A DNA stretch of 64,000 nt from assembly GCA_016191165.1 (NCBI GenBank), contig JACPPF010000114.1:60677-124676 (forward strand), written 5' to 3'. Shown here piece after piece: positions 1,202-60,595 of this stretch. Origin of the DNA: Planctomycetota bacterium. GTDB lineage: Bacteria; Planctomycetota; Planctomycetia; Gemmatales; Gemmataceae. How positions within the stretch are numbered: position 1 is the stretch's first letter; each line of letters opens with the position of its first letter. The notes beneath the pieces were generated by a model, which saw only the letters and a program-made list of their open reading frames with translations, searched no databases and was not told where the DNA came from. The position numbers and the translations under genes were made by a program.

Positions 1202-2764
<1,563 letters not shown>

Positions 2765-4283: not shown

Positions 4284-6515
4284 TCACCCGCGCGTCTCGC
4301 CTGCTGGTTTCGGGCCGCGCTTGCGGTTGGCGCGCGTCTTGGCGGGGGTTGGAGCTAACACCGGAACCGGGGGCGGGATTTCCATGGAGCGCCGCTGGGC
4401 GTTCTGGGCGGCGATCTCCAGGAAACGCTCCTGGCTGCGCAGGGCGGGTTGATCCGGCTTGCGCTCGACGCGGCGATAGGTTCCGTCCGGCAGGAGCGCC
4501 CGCGCCTTGGTGTTGTCGGCCAGGCCGATTGCCAGGATTTCGTGGATGAGCCGATTCTTCAATTCCGTGTGCTCCACCGGGAAGACCACCTCGACGCGCC
4601 GGCTGAGGTTGCGGTCCATCCAGTCGGCGGAGCCGATGTAGACCTGGGCGTCGCCGTTGTTGTGGAAGTAGAAGATGCGGCTATGTTCCAGGAAGCGATC
4701 GACGATGGAGATGACGCGAATGTTCTCGCTGATGCCGGGCAGACCTGGCCGCAGGGCGCAGATGCCCCGGCAGAGCAGGTCGATCTTCACTCCAGCCTGG
4801 CTGGCGCGGTAGAGCCCCTGGACGATGGTCGGCTCCAACAGGCCGTTCACTTTCACGATGATCTGCCCCAATCTGCCTGCCCGGGCGTTGTCCGCCTCTT
4901 GCTGGATGCGCTCGAGCATGAACGCCTGCATTCGGCTCGGCGCGACGACGATCTTGCGCCATTGCGGCAGTTCGGAGTAGCCGGTCAGGTAGTTGAAGAG
5001 AGCGGAGGCGTCGTCGCAGAAGTCGTTGTTGCAGGTGAAGAAACCGAGGTCGGTGTAGACGCGCGCGGTCTGCGGGTTGTAGTTGCCCGTCGCCATGTGT
5101 ACGTAGCGGCGGATGCCGTCGTCCTCCCGGCGTACGACCAGGGCGACCTTGCAATGGGTCTTGAGGCCGACGAAGCCGAAGACGACGTGAACGCCGGATT
5201 TTTCCAGTTCGCGTGCCCAAAGGATGTTGCGTTCCTCGTCGAGGCGCGCCTTGAGCTCGATGACCGCGGTCACCTGTTTGCCGTTGTCGGCGGCAAGTTG
5301 CAGGGCCTTGACGACGGGCGAATCGCTGGAGGTGCGATAGAGGGTCTGCTTGATCGCCAGGACGCGTTCGTCCTTGGCGGCGGTCTCGATGAAATCGACG
5401 ACATGGCTGAAGGAGTCGTAGGGATGATGCACCAGAATGTCGCGCGCCCGGATGGCGCCGAACACGTTTGGCGCGTTGACGAATTCCGTCACGAGTTGTG
5501 GCGCGAACTGAGGGTCGCGAAGATGCGGGTAGCCGGGCAGGTTGCAAATCTGAAACAGCCCGGTGAGGTCGAGCAGGTCGGCGAAGGAATACACATCGGC
5601 CGCGTCGAGGTCGAGCGACTGCATCAGATAGTTGCTGATGACCGGATGGGCGTTCGCCTCGATTTCCAGGCGAACCGCGAAACCCCGGCGGCGTTTGCGG
5701 ACCTCCTCCTCGATGGTCTTGAGCAGGTCCTCGACCTCGTCATCGTCGATCTCGTATTCGCTATTTCGGCTCACGCGGAAGACGCTGGCATGCTCGATTT
5801 CCATGCCGGGGAACAAATCGGCCAGGTGGAGGCGGATGACGGTTTCGAGCGGAATCAACAGCTCGCCCGTTTCGAGTTTTTGGGGCACAAAGCGAGGCAG
5901 CACGGCCGGCACCTGGACGACTGCGAGCAATTTTTCACCGTCGCGCGGCCTTTTCAAGAGCACAGCGAGGTTGAGCGATTTGTTCAGGAGGTGCGGGAAT
6001 GGATGGCCCTGATCGACGGCCAGGGGAGTCAGGACCGGGAAGACGTCCCGGCGAAAGTAGGCGGTGAGCCCGTCTTTTTGCTTATTGTCAAGGTCCTTGT
6101 GGATGCGCAGAAAGATGCCCTCTTTTTCCAGCGTGGGTAGGAGTTGTTCGCGCAGGCACTGGTAGGCTTCCTGGAACAACTCGCGCACGATCTGGCTGAT
6201 GGCCGCCAGCTGGTCGCGCGGCGCCAAACGATCCGCCCCGGAGCCCACGTTGATGCCGGCCGCGGCTTTCTGCTGCAGGCCGCCGACGCGCACCATGAAG
6301 AATTCGTCGAGATTGGCCGCGAAGATGGCGAGGAACTTGGTGCGCTCCAGAAGCGGCACGCCGGGGTCGAGTGCCTCCTCGAGAACGCGGCGATTGAACG
6401 CCAGCCAGCTCAACTCGCGATTGATGTACAAACTCGGATCGTCGAGCGGCGGCCCAGCCGGGGGTGCCGCATCGGGCTTGCGCACGACCAACGATCCGTT
6501 CGCGTCCGCTTGCAT
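4284..6515 (-). CDS. ppk1: Polyphosphate kinase 1
   Basis: A 743-residue cytoplasmic or membrane-associated enzyme that reversibly polymerises the gamma-phosphate of ATP into inorganic polyphosphate. The family's four domains are recognisable: N-terminal helical domain (YINRELSWLAFNRRVLEEA), the head domain (FVPQKLETGELLIPLE), and two phospholipase D-like halves. The phospho-accepting histidine is in GLKTHCKVALVVRRE, and the second conserved histidine/aspartate region is YFHNNGDAQVYIGSADWM. Other landmarks are DRVLEHSRIFYF-type and RVEVVFPVE. Length slightly exceeds the usual 690 because of a proline- and lysine-rich tail. AGGAGA seven bases before the ATG supports the start. It is monocistronic; a perfect TATAAT lies upstream. 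Confidence 0.96.
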   Translation of the reverse strand: MQADANGSLVVRKPDAAPPAGPPLDDPSLYINRELSWLAFNRRVLEEALDPGVPLLERTKFLAIFAANLDEFFMVRVGGLQQKAAAGINVGSGADRLAPRDQLAAISQIVRELFQEAYQCLREQLLPTLEKEGIFLRIHKDLDNKQKDGLTAYFRRDVFPVLTPLAVDQGHPFPHLLNKSLNLAVLLKRPRDGEKLLAVVQVPAVLPRFVPQKLETGELLIPLETVIRLHLADLFPGMEIEHASVFRVSRNSEYEIDDDEVEDLLKTIEEEVRKRRRGFAVRLEIEANAHPVISNYLMQSLDLDAADVYSFADLLDLTGLFQICNLPGYPHLRDPQFAPQLVTEFVNAPNVFGAIRARDILVHHPYDSFSHVVDFIETAAKDERVLAIKQTLYRTSSDSPVVKALQLAADNGKQVTAVIELKARLDEERNILWARELEKSGVHVVFGFVGLKTHCKVALVVRREDDGIRRYVHMATGNYNPQTARVYTDLGFFTCNNDFCDDASALFNYLTGYSELPQWRKIVVAPSRMQAFMLERIQQEADNARAGRLGQIIVKVNGLLEPTIVQGLYRASQAGVKIDLLCRGICALRPGLPGISENIRVISIVDRFLEHSRIFYFHNNGDAQVYIGSADWMDRNLSRRVEVVFPVEHTELKNRLIHEILAIGLADNTKARALLPDGTYRRVERKPDQPALRSQERFLEIAAQNAQRRSMEIPPPVPVLAPTPAKTRANRKRGPKPAGETRG

Positions 6516-10599: not shown

Positions 10600-10665
10600 A
10601 ACCAGCCCCCGGCGCAAGCCGGGGGGTGAAGCCGCTTCACCGCCGGCTTGCGCCGGGGGCTGGTT
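10600..10665. repeat. 66-bp palindrome with nested hairpin
   Basis: Perfect 23-bp arms at 10600-10622 and 10643-10665 (beginning AACCAGCCCCCGGCGCAAGC). The 20-base centre is itself a hairpin (GGTGAAG-CCG-CTTCACC). This would extrude as a cruciform or fold as a long RNA stem. Confidence 0.9.
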
Positions 10666-22500: not shown

Positions 22501-22504
22501 CCTC

Positions 22505-22581
22505 CACGCCCACAGCCGAAAGGCTGTGGGATTTCCACGAGCTTCCATTGCTTGATCCCGCAGCCTTTCGGCTGCGGGCGT
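22505..22581. repeat. Pair of opposing hairpins
   Basis: Two hairpins, 22509-22530 (CCCACAGCC-GAAA-GGCTGTGGG) and 22557-22578 (CCCGCAGCC-TTTC-GGCTGCGGG), are inverted copies of each other, so the whole unit is also one large inverted repeat. It fills the gap between the lipoyl-carrier and ferredoxin genes and could stabilise or attenuate the message. Confidence 0.8.
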
Positions 22582-22595
22582 GCAGAGAAATATTT

Positions 22596-23696
22596 ATGAA
22601 CCGACACCGCATCACTGTCGTCCTGTCGCAAGCCCAGGGCAAGCATCCCGGCAAGCGGGCACTGGAAGAGTCGATTGTCGCGGCCCTCATCATGGAGCCG
22701 GGCCTCGACGTCTCCGTGATCCCGCATCTTTACGATCTGGGCGCCGACCACACGGGCCGGCTATTTCTTGGCTCCGTGCGCGGCGACATGGTTTTGCTCT
22801 CGTGGCTGTTTCCGCGTGCGGCGTTCTGGGTCATGGATCGCGACGGCATCAAGGGACACTGGGGCGAATCGCAACTCAAGTCGGCTCACGCCGATGACGA
22901 CGACGACGCCGCCCCCGAGCCGCCCAAGGGAATTGGTTCTCTCGATGTTCCCGATCGGCATATCTACTGCCTCGACTTGCGCGACTTCAATCAGCACGAG
23001 CCGTACGTCAACGAGATTCGCCGCATCGCGGAAGAAAGCCGCGCGCGTGCCGAGCAAAAACAGAGCCAACGCGCCCCAGCGCTGGTACAACTCGGCGGCC
23101 TGGGCGAGTCGGCAGCCTCAGCGACCGGAGGGCCGTTGACACTCACTCCGGTCGCCGGCGCTTTCGGCTCGCCGTTCGTCAATGGCACTCCCGCCACTGA
23201 CGCTCCCGGCTCGCCATTTGCGCCGGACCAGTTGTTGCAAGCGGCAGGCCGACGCTGGTATCCGGTCATCGACTATAGCCGCTGCACCAATTGCATGGAG
23301 TGCATCGACTTCTGCCTGTTCGGTGTCTACGGCGTTGACGGGCAGGAACGCATTCTCGTCGAGAATCAGGACAACTGCAAAAAGGGCTGCCCCGCCTGTA
23401 GCAGAGTCTGCCCCGAACAAGCGATCATGTTCCCGGATTACAAGACGGCCGCGATCGCCGGCGCTCCGGTCGGGGCGATCGGGAATCTCAAGATCGATCT
23501 GACCAAGCTCTTCGGGGGCGCCGACAAGGACGCCCTGTCGCAAGCCGTGGAAGAGCGCGACCGCGAACTCGTCGCCGATGGCCGCGATGCCGTCGGTGCA
23601 ACCGTGGGCATCCCGAAACGCCAGAACAACGCGACCGTCGGACCCAAGGACGACCTTGACAACTTGATGGACGCGCTGGACGCCATGGAGATCTGA
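22596..23696 (+). CDS. Two-cluster 4Fe-4S ferredoxin with a large N-terminal domain
   Basis: A 366-residue protein. The N-terminal 120 residues form an unrecognised alpha/beta domain (ITVVLSQAQGKHPGKRALEESIVAALIMEP as first strand and helix, then DMVLLSWLFPRAAFWVMD). A low-complexity Gly/Ala/Pro/Thr linker leads to a ferredoxin module with two cysteine sets, Cys230/233/236/240 (CTNCMECIDFC) and Cys261/265/268/272 (CKKGCPACSRVCP). The first set has the normal CxxCxxCxxxC spacing; the second has an extra residue in its first gap. A charged tail ends in DDLDNLMDALDAMEI. It is the third gene of the trio with the radical SAM and lipoyl-carrier genes and is a natural electron donor to one of them. 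Confidence 0.82.
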   Translation: MNRHRITVVLSQAQGKHPGKRALEESIVAALIMEPGLDVSVIPHLYDLGADHTGRLFLGSVRGDMVLLSWLFPRAAFWVMDRDGIKGHWGESQLKSAHADDDDDAAPEPPKGIGSLDVPDRHIYCLDLRDFNQHEPYVNEIRRIAEESRARAEQKQSQRAPALVQLGGLGESAASATGGPLTLTPVAGAFGSPFVNGTPATDAPGSPFAPDQLLQAAGRRWYPVIDYSRCTNCMECIDFCLFGVYGVDGQERILVENQDNCKKGCPACSRVCPEQAIMFPDYKTAAIAGAPVGAIGNLKIDLTKLFGGADKDALSQAVEERDRELVADGRDAVGATVGIPKRQNNATVGPKDDLDNLMDALDAMEI

Positions 23697-37742: not shown

Positions 37743-37818
37743 GCGAGCCGCCGGGCTTGTCCCGGAGGTGTATTCCGGTCCGCCTTGGTTCACCGCCGGG
37801 ACAAGCCCGGCGGCTCGC
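37743..37818. repeat. Palindromic repeat with perfect 23-bp arms
   Basis: Arms 37743-37765 (starting GCGAGCCGCCGGGCTTGTCC) and 37796-37818 are exact inverted copies with a 30-base centre. It is between the two terminator-like hairpins, and could form a stable stem in DNA or RNA. Confidence 0.9.
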
Positions 37819-38989: not shown

Positions 38990-39050
38990 CGAGCCGCGAC
39001 CGTAAGGGAGCGGGCGGGCGCTAGGAGCGCTCGCTCACGCTCGCGGCTCG
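38990..39050. repeat. Palindromic repeat (family A), intergenic copy
   Basis: Begins CGAGCCGCGACCGTAAGGGA and ends TCGCGGCTCG. It is a sibling of the copy inside gltD (2052-2116) and of 46025-46084. It lies 32 bases before the tricorn start. Confidence 0.8.
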
Positions 39051-43759: not shown

Positions 43760-43810
43760 GGAGAATTTCCTCCGCGAAGGTTACTCCGCTATTTTAGCAC
43801 AGGTTGATAC

Positions 43811-43846
43811 GTTTAGCGCTCGCGTGACGCCGCGCGAGCGCTAAAC
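43811..43846. repeat. Palindrome, 14-bp perfect arms (GTTTAGC family)
   Basis: GTTTAGCGCTCGCG (43811-43824) and its exact inverse (43833-43846) surround an eight-base loop. Lies between the Uma2 gene and the aldehyde dehydrogenase gene. Confidence 0.8.
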
Positions 43847-43854
43847 GGGATCGG

Positions 43855-52381: not shown

Positions 52382-52447
52382 GTTTAGCCGCTCGCCTTTG
52401 GCGAGCGGGTGCGGTGTATACCGCTCGCCAAAGGCGAGCGGCTAAAC
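52382..52447. repeat. Palindrome with perfect 27-bp arms
   Basis: Arms 52382-52408 (starting GTTTAGCCGCTCGCCTTTGG) and 52421-52447 are exact inverted copies with a 12-base loop. Each arm is itself a hairpin (CGCTCGCC-TTT-GGCGAGCG). It lies between propeller genes 1 and 2. Confidence 0.92.
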
Positions 52448-54186: not shown

Positions 54187-54259
54187 ATGAGGGTTCTCCT
54201 GGCAGTCCGTTTTGTGATCGATCTCAATCAAATATAAGGCAATGCGCCGCATGACTAAT

Positions 54260-54317
54260 CCGAGCCCGAGCGCCAGCGAAGGGCGTTGCGTTGCGCTTCG
54301 CTGGCGCTCAGGCTCGG
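54260..54317. repeat. Palindromic repeat (family C)
   Basis: Arms 54260-54281 (CCGAGCCCGAGCGCCAGCG and so on) and 54296-54317 are inverted with one mismatch. Its arm matches the repeat at 31195-31264. It lies in the gap before propeller gene 2 and touches the last bases of propeller gene 3's 3' side. Confidence 0.8.
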
Positions 54318-54326
54318 AAATACACG

Positions 54327-56844: not shown

Positions 56845-58128
56845 TTACTTGATCAAGATTCGCTGTGCCTTCATCTCAAACCGCGGCAACGTGCCCTTGG
56901 CTACCAGGACCACCTCGGCGCGGAACATCAACTCGTCGCGAATCGCCTCGACGATTCGCGCCGGCAAGCGGTCGTCCGGTTGATCGGTTTCAATCTCGAT
57001 CCGCATCTCGGCAAGTGCGTTCGAACGATCCAGGCTGGCGCGATATTCGACCACCTCGGCGAATCGTCGCAGCACGTTTTCCAGGGCACCGGGGTAAAAA
57101 TTATTACCCCGGATGGCAATCATGTCGTCCGTCCGGCCCAGGATGCCGCCGGCGAGCCGCATCCACGTTCGGCCACACGGGCATGGGTTGGGATCGACGC
57201 GAACCAGGTCGCCTGTTCGATAGCGTATGAGCGGACTGCCGATTCGTCCCAGGTTTGTCAGCACCAATTCGCCGATGGTGTTCCCCTGTCCTGGTGTCTC
57301 GTAGGTCAGGCTTTCCAGCCTGACCTGGCTTCCAACCCGGTCAGGCTGGAAAGCCTGACCTACTCGAATGGGGAGCATTCGGCCTGTCGCGGGATCAATC
57401 ACCTCCGCGAAAAAATCGTCCTCCAGAATATGTAGACCGCCGGGGTTCTCCGGGCATTCAATGGCCAGCGGCCCGACTTCGGTCATGCCGCTGTGGTCGA
57501 ACACGCGGGCCTTCCAGGCCTCCTCGATGCGGGCCCGCGTGCCCGGAATGCTGCCGCCGGGCTCGCCGGCGACGATCAGAGCACGGACGCCGTCGAGCTG
57601 GATACCGTTTTCCTTTGCGAACTGGGCGAGGTGCAGGGCATAGGTTGGCGTGCAGAGAACCACGGTGGCGCGATTGTCCAGCAGCATCCGCACGCGGGCG
57701 CCGCTCGACAGGCCCCCCGCTGCCAGGCAAAGGCAGCCCATCCGCGCAGCCGACTCGAACGCCGTCCAGAACCCCAGGAACGGCCCGAACGAAAACGCGA
57801 ACAGCAGCCGATCCGCAGGCGTCACGCCGACGATGTCAAACATCTTCCGCCAGGAGCCGAGCATCCGGTCCCAGCTTTCCGCGGTATCGAGCCAGCGCAG
57901 CGGCACACCGCGCGTGCCCGAAGTTTGATGGAGCCGGGTGTAGCGCTCTAGCGGGTAGGTCAGCAATTCCCCATACGGCGGGTGCTCGGCCTGGTTGGCA
58001 AGCAACTCGTCCTTGGTCGTGAACGGCAATGCTTGCCAATCATCAAGTGACAGCCCGGCGAATTTTCGCGCATAGAAGCGGTGCGCAGGCAGGATCGTGT
58101 GCAACAAATTCGCCAAACGCGGGTCCAT
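56845..58128 (-). CDS. Phenylacetate-CoA-ligase-like protein with an in-frame palindromic insertion
   Basis: A 427-residue adenylate-forming enzyme of the PaaK type. Landmarks are YTRLHQTSGTRGVPLRWLD (the SGTxGxP loop), LLFAFSFGPFLGFW, CTPTYALHLAQFAKENG, LIVAGEPGGSIPGTR, FDHSGMTEVGPLAIEC (adenine strand) and LIRYRTGDLVRVD (the hinge aspartate) with CPCGRTW and GRTDDMIAIRGNNFYPGALENVL. Residues 256-276 (VGQAFQPDRVGSQVRLESLT and one more) are coded exactly by the 63-bp palindrome 57301-57363, inserted between MLPIR and ETPGQGNTIGELVLTN. The frame stays open through it. A substrate cannot be read; the neighbours are PQQ propeller genes. Confidence 0.9.
   Translation of the reverse strand: MDPRLANLLHTILPAHRFYARKFAGLSLDDWQALPFTTKDELLANQAEHPPYGELLTYPLERYTRLHQTSGTRGVPLRWLDTAESWDRMLGSWRKMFDIVGVTPADRLLFAFSFGPFLGFWTAFESAARMGCLCLAAGGLSSGARVRMLLDNRATVVLCTPTYALHLAQFAKENGIQLDGVRALIVAGEPGGSIPGTRARIEEAWKARVFDHSGMTEVGPLAIECPENPGGLHILEDDFFAEVIDPATGRMLPIRVGQAFQPDRVGSQVRLESLTYETPGQGNTIGELVLTNLGRIGSPLIRYRTGDLVRVDPNPCPCGRTWMRLAGGILGRTDDMIAIRGNNFYPGALENVLRRFAEVVEYRASLDRSNALAEMRIEIETDQPDDRLPARIVEAIRDELMFRAEVVLVAKGTLPRFEMKAQRILIK
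57301..57363 (-). repeat. Palindromic repeat (family B) inside the ligase-like gene
   Basis: Perfect 25-bp arms (57301-57325 and 57339-57363, starting GTAGGTCAGGCTTTCCAGCC) with a 13-base loop. The whole unit is 63 bp, exactly 21 codons, and supplies 21 residues in frame. The peptide VGQAFQPD it codes is a string I have seen in many annotated planctomycete proteins. Confidence 0.92.
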
Positions 58129-59626: not shown

Positions 59627-60595
59627 ATGCCACCACCTCCCATTGCCATCATCGATTCTCATACCGCGGGCGAACCAACGCGCGTCGTCGTCAGCGGCGG
59701 GCCCGACCTTGGGGTCGGCTCACTTGCTGAACGGCGCAAACGCTTCCAGCGCCATTTTGACCACTATCGCACGGCCATCATCAACGAACCACGCGGCTCC
59801 GAGGTGCTGGTCGGGGCGCTTTTGTGCACGCCTTGCGATCCGACCTGTGCCGCCGGCGTGATCTTTTTCAACAACGTGGGCTATCTCGGCATGTGCGGAC
59901 ACGGGACGATCGGCGTCATCGTGACCTTGGCGCATCTGGGCCGAATCGGCGCCGGCATTCACCTACTTGAGACGCCAGTCGGCTGCGTCAGCGCCGAGTA
60001 CGATGGCGGGAACACCGTCACCGTTGCCAACGTGCCGAGCTATCGGCATCGCAAAGACGTCAAGGTGCGTATGGATGACGGGAGCACGATCACCGGCGAC
60101 GTGGCGTGGGGCGGCAACTGGTTCTTCCTGCTCGACGCGCATGGGCAATCGCTGGACCGCGCCAACGTGGATGCCCTAACCCATTTCACCTGGGGAATTC
60201 GCCGAGCTTTGCAGGAACAGGCCATCACCGGTGTGGACGGCGCGGAAATCGATCATATCGAACTGTTCGGGCCGCCACGCGATTCACGCAATCAGGGCCG
60301 AAATTTTGTGCTGTGCCCTGGCAAGGCGTACGATCGATCGCCGTGCGGCACAGGCACCAGCGCGAAGATCGCCTGCCTGATCGCCGACGGTAAACTCAAG
60401 CCCGGTGCGACCTGGCGGCAGGAGAGCATCCTCGGTAGCGTGTTTGAGGCTTCTGGAATCGTGATTACCGATGCCGCGCCGGTAGACGCCGGGCCCGTGG
60501 TGCTGCCGTCGATTCGGGGCAGCGCTCACATCACCGCCGAGGCGCGGCTGGTGCTGGATGAGGCCGACCCCTTTCAGTGGGGGATCTCGGGATGA
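59627..60595 (+). CDS. lhpA: 4-Hydroxyproline 2-epimerase
   Basis: A 322-residue member of the proline racemase fold. The two catalytic cysteines are Cys90 ([13 protein letters not shown]) and Cys240 ([14 protein letters not shown]); both are present, as needed for racemase or epimerase activity (dehydratase relatives have Thr at the second site). [18 protein letters not shown] opens the fold. It turns trans-4-hydroxy-L-proline into cis-4-hydroxy-D-proline, the first step of the D-route. The choice of hydroxyproline epimerase over proline racemase rests on the genes that follow (an FAD amine oxidase and a hydroxyproline-dehydrogenase-like protein). Start chosen at the ATG at 59627; the next gene overlaps by ATGA. 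Confidence 0.88.

What the first reader, a model, noticed from the sequence alone, without database searches (positions are those of the whole stretch)
57301..57363. Exact 63-bp, 21-codon palindrome inserted in a PaaK-like ligase
The element has perfect 25-bp arms and a 13-base loop, is exactly 21 codons long and keeps the reading frame, adding VGQAFQPD... between two conserved segments of an adenylate-forming enzyme. It is unrelated in sequence to the gltD element, so two different palindrome families in one 64-kb window have entered coding sequence in frame. A length divisible by three with one stop-free frame suggests selection for, or a mechanism favouring, protein-compatible insertion.
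Basis: partly seen in the sequence, partly recalled or inferred. Interest (0 to 1): 0.82.

Follow-up and report, generated by a model that had tools for sequence, protein, structure and literature searches.

The report
Mobile DNA palindrome filling enzyme loop
A 63-base DNA palindrome, of a family with hundreds of matches in this bacterium's genome and likely spread by a transposase, sits in frame inside an enzyme gene where it is predicted to add a floppy 21-residue loop, and in close relatives of the enzyme the same loop holds other inserts, many of them matching other repeated palindromes.

Summary
In detail: a 63-bp palindrome with perfect 25-bp arms lies in frame in a PaaK-like ligase. 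It is a head-to-head pair of GTAG-tagged REP units (24+15+24 bp), a REPIN. The genome gives 365 pattern matches, about 314 distinct units by extrapolation (control 0), and has a RAYT-like transposase gene with 12 units around it; mobilisation by it is inferred. 63 bp is no rule of the family: of 62 sampled pairs 34 are 62 bp, 14 are 63, 3 are 64. 31 of 34 62-bp copies are closed in all six frames; every 63- and 64-bp copy has an open frame, and only these occur in genes. In-gene clusters are rare (7 of 63 assessable, against about 85% coding), so selection after insertion explains the frame. None of six same-genus orthologues has this insert. The surprise: in four of these six the same loop holds a different repeated palindrome; of 58 other close homologues 49 have a loop longer than the usual 29 residues and 29 match translations of three other palindrome families (61 more distant homologues: 0 longer, 1 matching). 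Intragenic REPs are known; one loop colonised repeatedly by unrelated families is the new part.

The parts
57301..57363 (-). 63-bp REPIN (inverted pair of GTAG-REP units), translated on the - strand as VGQAFQPDRVGSQVRLESLTY, residues 256-276
57301..57324 (+). REP unit 1: GTAG tag + 8-bp stem GTCAGGCT, loop TTCC, AGCCTGAC
   Evidence: exact match to the pattern; this exact sequence is 99 of 161 sampled units
57325..57339 (.). 15-bp spacer between the two REP units
   Evidence: pairs one base shorter are commoner in the family
57340..57363 (-). REP unit 2, same sequence on the opposite strand
56845..58128 (-). PaaK-like adenylate-forming ligase, 427 aa, host gene of the insert
   Evidence: Pfam AMP-binding_C_2 52 bits (cut-off 25), AMP-binding 24.5 bits (cut-off 29.9, not reached); PDB 4r1l 185 bits; Foldseek best 4rvn_D TM 0.82
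57253..57423 (-). variable loop EDD...GELVLTN (57 codons here, 29 in most homologues of the family) that holds the insert

Best explanation
The 63-bp palindrome is a head-to-head pair of GTAG-tagged REP units (a REPIN), likely spread by the RAYT-like transposase gene that lies among such units on contig C14 of the same genome, and it sits in frame in a PaaK-like ligase gene where it is predicted to be translated as a disordered 21-residue loop that the enzyme likely tolerates. Shown: sequence, copy number, pairing, the RAYT-like gene with 12 units around it, absence of the insert from six same-genus orthologues, open frame, low-confidence loop in the model. Inferred: the RAYT nicks and joins single-stranded REP DNA as its studied relatives do in vitro; insertions fall in many places, most of those in genes are purged, and the survivors are those that (a) have a length and phase without stop or net frameshift and (b) hit a loop that tolerates extra residues. 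The ligase loop is such a place: other palindrome families occupy it in other species, so it behaves as a sink for small palindromic elements.
For: 365 pattern matches in the own genome (about 314 units), control 0; matches in 6 of 6 other same-genus genomes, 2 of 12 other genomes of the family, 0 of 12 from other families. RAYT-like ORF L017:5705-6373: Y1_Tnp 34.4 bits over cut-off 23, best PDB match 4er8 TnpA-REP E 9.5e-5, NHVH and YTEDNP; 12 distinct units in its locus L005, 2 in L004, 0 in the other nine Y1_Tnp loci. Pair lengths and frames. 7 of 63 assessable clusters in genes, all phase 0. BipA and S9-peptidase copies absent from orthologues (4 of 4 same-genus genomes that cover the BipA site, 5 of 5 for S9). 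Ligase loop: 5 of 7 genus members expanded, each with a different palindrome; those of the four others match their own genome at 5, 58, 26 and 49 places (own copy included; up to 2, 3, 3, 3 mismatches; controls 0). 49 of 58 other close homologues longer than 29, 0 of 61 more distant ones. Residues 258-279 are the only stretch of three or more with pLDDT below 50.
Against: No expression or activity data. No exact empty site: without the REPIN the loop would still be 36 residues, 7 more than the usual 29, and the S9 and BipA junctions are not clean. The RAYT-like protein scores 65.6 bits in NCBIfam REP_Tyr_transpos, under the cut-off of 80, and its 3' end runs into a REPIN. The G001 palindrome is of low copy (5 places), and in G006 all other places differ by 3 bases. 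29 of 59 homologue loops do not match the four families at 5 of 6 residues. The sample of copies is partly drawn from BLAST hits to this in-gene copy.
Confidence: 0.84

Rival explanations
1. Insertion is steered to coding-compatible places or lengths: the family is built so that it can be translated, and selection or the transposition mechanism favours in-frame entry.
For: 63-bp copies are open in phase 0 on both strands (13 of 14) or one (1 of 14); all seven in-gene clusters use that phase.
Against: Modal length 62 bp, 31 of 34 such copies closed in all six frames; 7 of 63 clusters in genes against about 85% coding; two in-gene copies are 64 bp and need changes beside them to keep the frame.
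Confidence: 0.06
2. The insert is domesticated: the peptide or the mRNA hairpin has a function in this gene (regulatory loop, RNA stability or translational pausing).
For: Very stable predicted hairpin, -57.0 kcal/mol for the coding strand of the 63 bp; the loop is filled again and again in the clade.
Against: Loops differ between homologues (58 distinct among 59); nine of 59 have a loop of 29 or less; predicted disordered.
Confidence: 0.07
3. The loop varies for reasons of its own (slippage, drift of a low-complexity loop) and the palindrome content of the other species is a coincidence.
For: 29 of 59 loops carry no match to the four families; junctions of other copies are not clean.
Against: The loop DNA in G001, G002, G004 and G006 matches dispersed repeats of that genome with reversed-pattern control 0; loops of more distant homologues are 29 in 57 of 61 and never longer.
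Confidence: 0.04

Closest known systems
GTAG-tagged REP families (Di Nocera et al. 2013, PMC3733652)
   Same: 5' GTAG, short stem with small loop, high copy, head-to-head dimers, mostly extragenic, some inside ORFs, more than half of these dimers or groups adding 20-30 residues; GTAG repeats reported also from planctomycetes (R. baltica, name expanded from recall: Rhodopirellula) and most intragenic ones from O. terrae (Verrucomicrobia)
   Different: I could not compare this stem with their 24 consensus sequences (in a figure that is not held). They report different REPs at about the same site only for recB of two Xanthomonas; here one loop is occupied by several families across a clade
REPIN-RAYT systems / REPtrons (Bertels and Rainey 2011, PMC3116915; Corneloup et al. 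2021, PMC8266576)
   Same: Inverted REP doublet with spacer, a RAYT-like gene flanked by units of the same family, HuH and Tyr motifs, perfect-palindrome type of REP
   Different: The RAYT-like protein is below the NCBIfam cut-off; in Pseudomonas SBW25 14 of 1,067 of the commonest 16-mers overlapped genes, here 7 of 63 sampled clusters lie in genes (samples not comparable in kind)
Rickettsia palindromic elements (RPE; Ogata et al. 2000, known to me through PMC10969869 and PMC3733652)
   Same: Palindromes inserted in frame in many unrelated genes
   Different: RPEs are given as about 150 bp in the review; RPE-4 and RPE-6 are CGTC repeats, for which no dedicated transposase was seen (PMC3733652). 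This one is 63 bp, GTAG-tagged and comes with a RAYT-like gene

Membership tests
GTAG-REP superfamily | unpaired GTAG at the 5' foot of the hairpin | tested here: met
   99 of 161 sampled units are exactly GTAGGTCAGGCTTTCCAGCCTGAC (GTAG is part of the search pattern, 2 mismatches allowed)
GTAG-REP superfamily | stem of 6-13 bp and short loop | tested here: met
   8-bp stem, 4-base loop
GTAG-REP superfamily | high copy number, mainly outside genes | tested here: met
   365 matches, about 314 units; 56 of 63 assessable clusters not within a coding ORF
REPIN | two REP units in inverted orientation with a spacer, as the commonest arrangement | tested here: met
   43 of 69 clusters are a simple +/- pair
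REPIN | RAYT gene flanked by units of the same family | tested here: met
   L005/L017: 12 units around the Y1_Tnp gene
REPIN | movement catalysed by the RAYT | not testable with these tools
   needs biochemistry or a laboratory population
RAYT / TnpA-REP | Y1_Tnp domain with HuH motif and catalytic tyrosine | tested here: met
   34.4 bits over 23; NHVH and YTEDNP read from the sequence (motif forms)
RAYT / TnpA-REP | NCBIfam NF047646 REP_Tyr_transpos at cut-off 80 | tested here: not met
   65.6 bits, E 4.3e-18; hence called RAYT-like; best PDB match 4er8 TnpA-REP
Rickettsia palindromic element | CGTC tag, or the ~150-bp form | tested here: not met
   63 bp with GTAG
PaaK phenylacetate-CoA ligase (equivalog) | TIGR02155 over cut-off 646 | tested here: not met
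   166.7 bits: PaaK-like fold, substrate unknown

The most novel reading that the evidence does not exclude
One loop of a single enzyme acts as a standing sink for mobile palindromes: across a planctomycete clade many lineages have received their own REP-type insert there, from at least four unrelated families, with some 25 changes of loop type on the gene tree, so that selfish DNA is the main source of loop diversity in this protein. Old inserts may even serve as landing sites for new ones, as the 7 extra residues beside this REPIN hint.
Probability: 0.5. Interest if true: 0.72.

Novelty: new variant of a known kind. Interest (0 to 1): 0.56.

Why it matters
In-frame palindromes in bacterial genes are best known from Rickettsia. 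Here a planctomycete clade gives a natural replicate experiment: the same loop of the same enzyme, occupied by different elements in different lineages, with a length filter (62 mostly closed, 63 and 64 open) that separates mutation from selection. It makes the question how far selfish DNA supplies new protein sequence directly countable, and it warns annotators that loops such as VGQAFQPD...VRLESLTY, LTPGPSPPEGRGE or PHAPREDSVTRSVTAT are likely translated repeats rather than domains.

Tried and rejected
Coding-compatible design of the element was tested by pair length and frame and rejected. A target-site rule was sought through orthologues of the BipA and S9-peptidase copies; the junctions are not clean (S9 lacks the SKRGDST of its orthologues; BipA has 27 more residues for a 64-bp element), so none was derived. 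Base counts beside the units, tandem arrays included, showed no strong consensus. A control enzyme, the neighbouring hydroxyproline epimerase (window 59627-60592), was meant to show that the ligase is special; it has inserts of similar look (PYGARL, AHATRL, PSPRGR) at two loops in a minority of 120 homologues, so the process looks general and the ligase loop is only the most heavily hit place that I looked at. A search of genome contigs for named orthologues gave two loci. Family D matches in the rest of the protein (35 of 59) are, but for one, a conserved stretch LGRLGS; A, B and C each match once there, C in a likely second insert of P0019. Tree labels were set by my own regular expressions; only families A-D are backed by DNA repeats; P0055, P0056, P0058 and P0074 (short) were left out of the tree. 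The set of 59 is P0001-P0058 plus P0074, a short sequence that ranks 74th but is 73% identical; without it 49 of 58 are longer than 29, the window's own included. L039 was dropped from the copy count as it repeats part of the window. A first count at 3 mismatches double-counted the palindrome and was replaced; a count of 13 units at the RAYT gene was likewise raw and is 12 after removal of overlaps.

Full report
What is there. The 63-bp element at 57301-57363 has perfect 25-bp arms and a 13-base loop and occupies codons 256-276 of a 427-aa ORF on the - strand. It is two 24-bp units, GTAG + 8-bp stem + TTCC loop, head to head with a 15-bp spacer. This is the build of a GTAG-tagged REP dimer, or REPIN (Di Nocera 2013, PMC3733652: passages, outline with abstract, sections 5 and 15 read; Bertels and Rainey 2011, PMC3116915: passages read; PMC6006769: passages read).

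Copies. A pattern scan of the own genome (7.23 Mb, 183 contigs) gave 182 + 183 matches at up to 2 mismatches and none for the reversed pattern. The unit is nearly palindromic, so some are matched on both strands: in my sample 187 raw matches are 161 units, which scales to about 314 units. BLAST with the 63 bp listed 107 strand-wise matches, with 40 of 154 candidates scored. All six other same-genus genomes have matches, 2 of 12 other genomes of the family, 0 of 12 from other families. I took 60 stretches around copies; with the window, and L039 dropped as a repeat of it, they hold 161 units in 69 clusters, 43 of them simple inverted pairs. 99 of 161 units are identical, which suggests recent spread (inference).

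Transposase. Eleven Y1_Tnp matches lie in the genome. One, L017:5705-6373 (222 aa), has 12 units of this family around it; of the other ten loci L004 has 2 and nine have none. It matches PDB 4er8 TnpA-REP (E 9.5e-5) and NCBIfam REP_Tyr_transpos at 65.6 bits, below the cut-off of 80. It shows NHVH and YTEDNP. That it moves these units is inferred from its position and from in vitro work on TnpA-REP of E. coli, Stenotrophomonas and Marinomonas (PMC8266576: abstract, outline and first part of the discussion read).

Length and frame. Of 62 inverted pairs with a gap of at most 45 bp, 34 are 62 bp, 14 are 63 and 3 are 64; in the 45 clusters of L012-L049 and the window, drawn mostly from the contig-ordered exact-match list, 27 of 42 are 62 and 6 are 63. 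31 of 34 62-bp copies are closed in all six frames; all 14 63-bp and 3 64-bp copies have an open phase 0 on at least one strand. With a simple codon-usage model and the thresholds in the script, 7 of 69 clusters (7 of the 63 not at a stretch or contig end) lie inside a coding ORF: this ligase, a protein kinase, a DAHP synthase, TypA/BipA, a flavoprotein, an S9 peptidase and one ORF without assignment (BipA and S9 by Pfam, the ligase, the other names by eye). All seven are in phase 0. In two of them (L027, L050) only one unit passes the pattern, the other being decayed. By strict pairs, 5 of 15 assessable 63/64-bp pairs and 0 of 28 62-bp pairs are in genes (Fisher p 0.003); a looser count that takes the two decayed pairs as 63 bp, leaves the triple cluster L055 out of the in-gene number and keeps stretch ends gives 6 of 19 against 0 of 34 (p 0.001). 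Coding fraction by the same model is 0.855 in the stretches and 0.877 in the window, so in-gene copies are strongly depleted. The sample is not random: part of it are BLAST hits to this in-gene copy, which if anything inflates the in-gene share and the 63-bp class.

Host gene. The ORF is a PaaK-like ligase whose substrate is unknown; it fails the PaaK equivalog cut-off. All six same-genus orthologues lack the insert. The site lies between strands 239-244 and 284-292 of the AlphaFold model (mean pLDDT 87.6); residues 258-279 are the only segment below 50. Foldseek puts the model on solved PaaK-like ligases, TM 0.82 for the best.

The same loop elsewhere. The loop from EDD to GELVLTN is 29 residues in most of the family. 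A match at E 1e-60 or better was found in 84 of 95 family genomes. Of 75 loops read outside the genus (77 loci, two truncated) two are longer than 29, L109 with 34 and L164 with 31; I did not look into these two. Within the genus 5 of 7 are longer: G000 57, G006 40, G002 38, G001 36, G004 33; G003 and G005 have 29. The DNA of each expanded loop holds a different palindrome, and each matches elsewhere in its own genome: GTAGCCGTCTCGCTCCGCGAGACG, itself GTAG-tagged, 5 places in G001 at up to 2 mismatches (the weakest case by number); CTCCCCTTTCCCTCTGGGAAAGGGG, 58 in G002 at up to 3, only its own exact; CCGTCTCCCCCGGTGGGGAGATGG, 26 in G006, all but its own at 3 mismatches; GCGAGCCGAGCCCCGTAAGGGGCCGG, 49 in G004 at up to 3, 16 of them exact. 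All counts include the loop's own copy. Reversed-pattern controls were 0.

In the protein search (8000 hits, the best 120 listed) I took P0001-P0058 and the short P0074 as the close set of 59, which includes the window's protein and also proteins with the loops of G001, G004 and G006. They have 58 distinct loops; 50 of 59, or 49 of the 58 others, are longer than 29. Of the remaining 61, 57 have 29 and none is longer. 30 of 59 contain a stretch with at least 5 of 6 residues of a translated unit of families A-D (A is this element, found only in the window's protein; so 29 of 58 others match B, C or D), against 1 of 61 more distant loops. On a FastTree of the rest of the protein (55 homologues, 8 outgroup) the loop type changes at least 25 times by parsimony; shuffled labels need 39 on average, 34 at least. 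So the types are partly inherited, and partly replaced many times; node support is low in places, and the labels are partly by eye. Elsewhere in the protein the close set shows one 6-residue two-state variant in 12 sequences and inserts of 4 and 9 residues at one other place, one of them (NLPSPSGRG) of family C type.

Is the loop special? In a neighbouring enzyme taken as control, inserts of similar look occur at two loops in a minority of 120 homologues. So the process looks general in these bacteria, and this loop is the most permissive place that I looked at. Whether elements also prefer it, for instance because they enter older palindromes, is open. Without the 21 codons the loop would have 36 residues, as in P0018 and P0042, which match family C; this hints at entry into an older insert but is weak, and the nearest neighbours on the tree, P0010 and P0015, carry family B.

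Known and new. In-frame REPs and RPEs are known; a review describes RPEs in frame in Rickettsia genes (PMC10969869, passages). Di Nocera et al. mention two Xanthomonas recB genes with different REPs at about the same site. Searches with planctomycete or Gemmata terms and for in-frame palindromes and RPEs in general listed no paper that I recognised as reporting this family or one loop colonised by several families; the library is open-access only, and of the listed papers I read five in part only.

Noticed in passing
window 2052-2116: Second in-gene palindrome, CGAGCCGCGACCGT..., in frame within a gltD-like ORF (1202-2761) as ...TAPLPDGRGSASD...; by eye it resembles the GCGAGCCG... family D and not the GTAG family.
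   Followed up: partly
window 23103-23173: Imperfect 28-bp-arm palindrome inside an ORF (22596-23693) with a cysteine pattern like that of 4Fe-4S ferredoxins, by eye.
   Followed up: no
window 52382-52447; L024:418-477; window 43810-43847: Another REPIN-like family with a GTTTAG foot (GTTTAGCCGCTCGCC...) between genes; it may have its own RAYT among the other ten Y1_Tnp genes.
   Followed up: no
L017:2226-5246 and 5243-5304: A REPIN at the end of a 1006-aa ORF supplies its stop codon (TAG of GTAG); part of the gene's 3' end is repeated downstream between REP units.
   Followed up: no
L017:5425-5699: Array of one forward and seven reverse REP units directly upstream of the RAYT-like gene, whose 3' end runs into a REPIN so that the protein ends with VGQAFQPD and 11 more residues.
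   Followed up: partly
L054:2407-2470: 64-bp REPIN in frame in a TypA/BipA GTPase, within the domain-2 match, absent from the four same-genus orthologues that cover the site.
   Followed up: yes
P0121-P0240 (homologues of window 59627-60592): Hydroxyproline-epimerase homologues carry peptides like translated palindromes (AHATRL, PYGARL, PSPRGR) at two loops.
   Followed up: partly
L109 and L164: Two ligase homologues outside the genus with loops of 34 and 31 residues; their DNA was not examined for palindromes.
   Followed up: no
window 22502-22585, 37743-37818, 10600-10665, 54259-54318, 38990-39050: Five further long palindromes between the called genes of this window.
   Followed up: no
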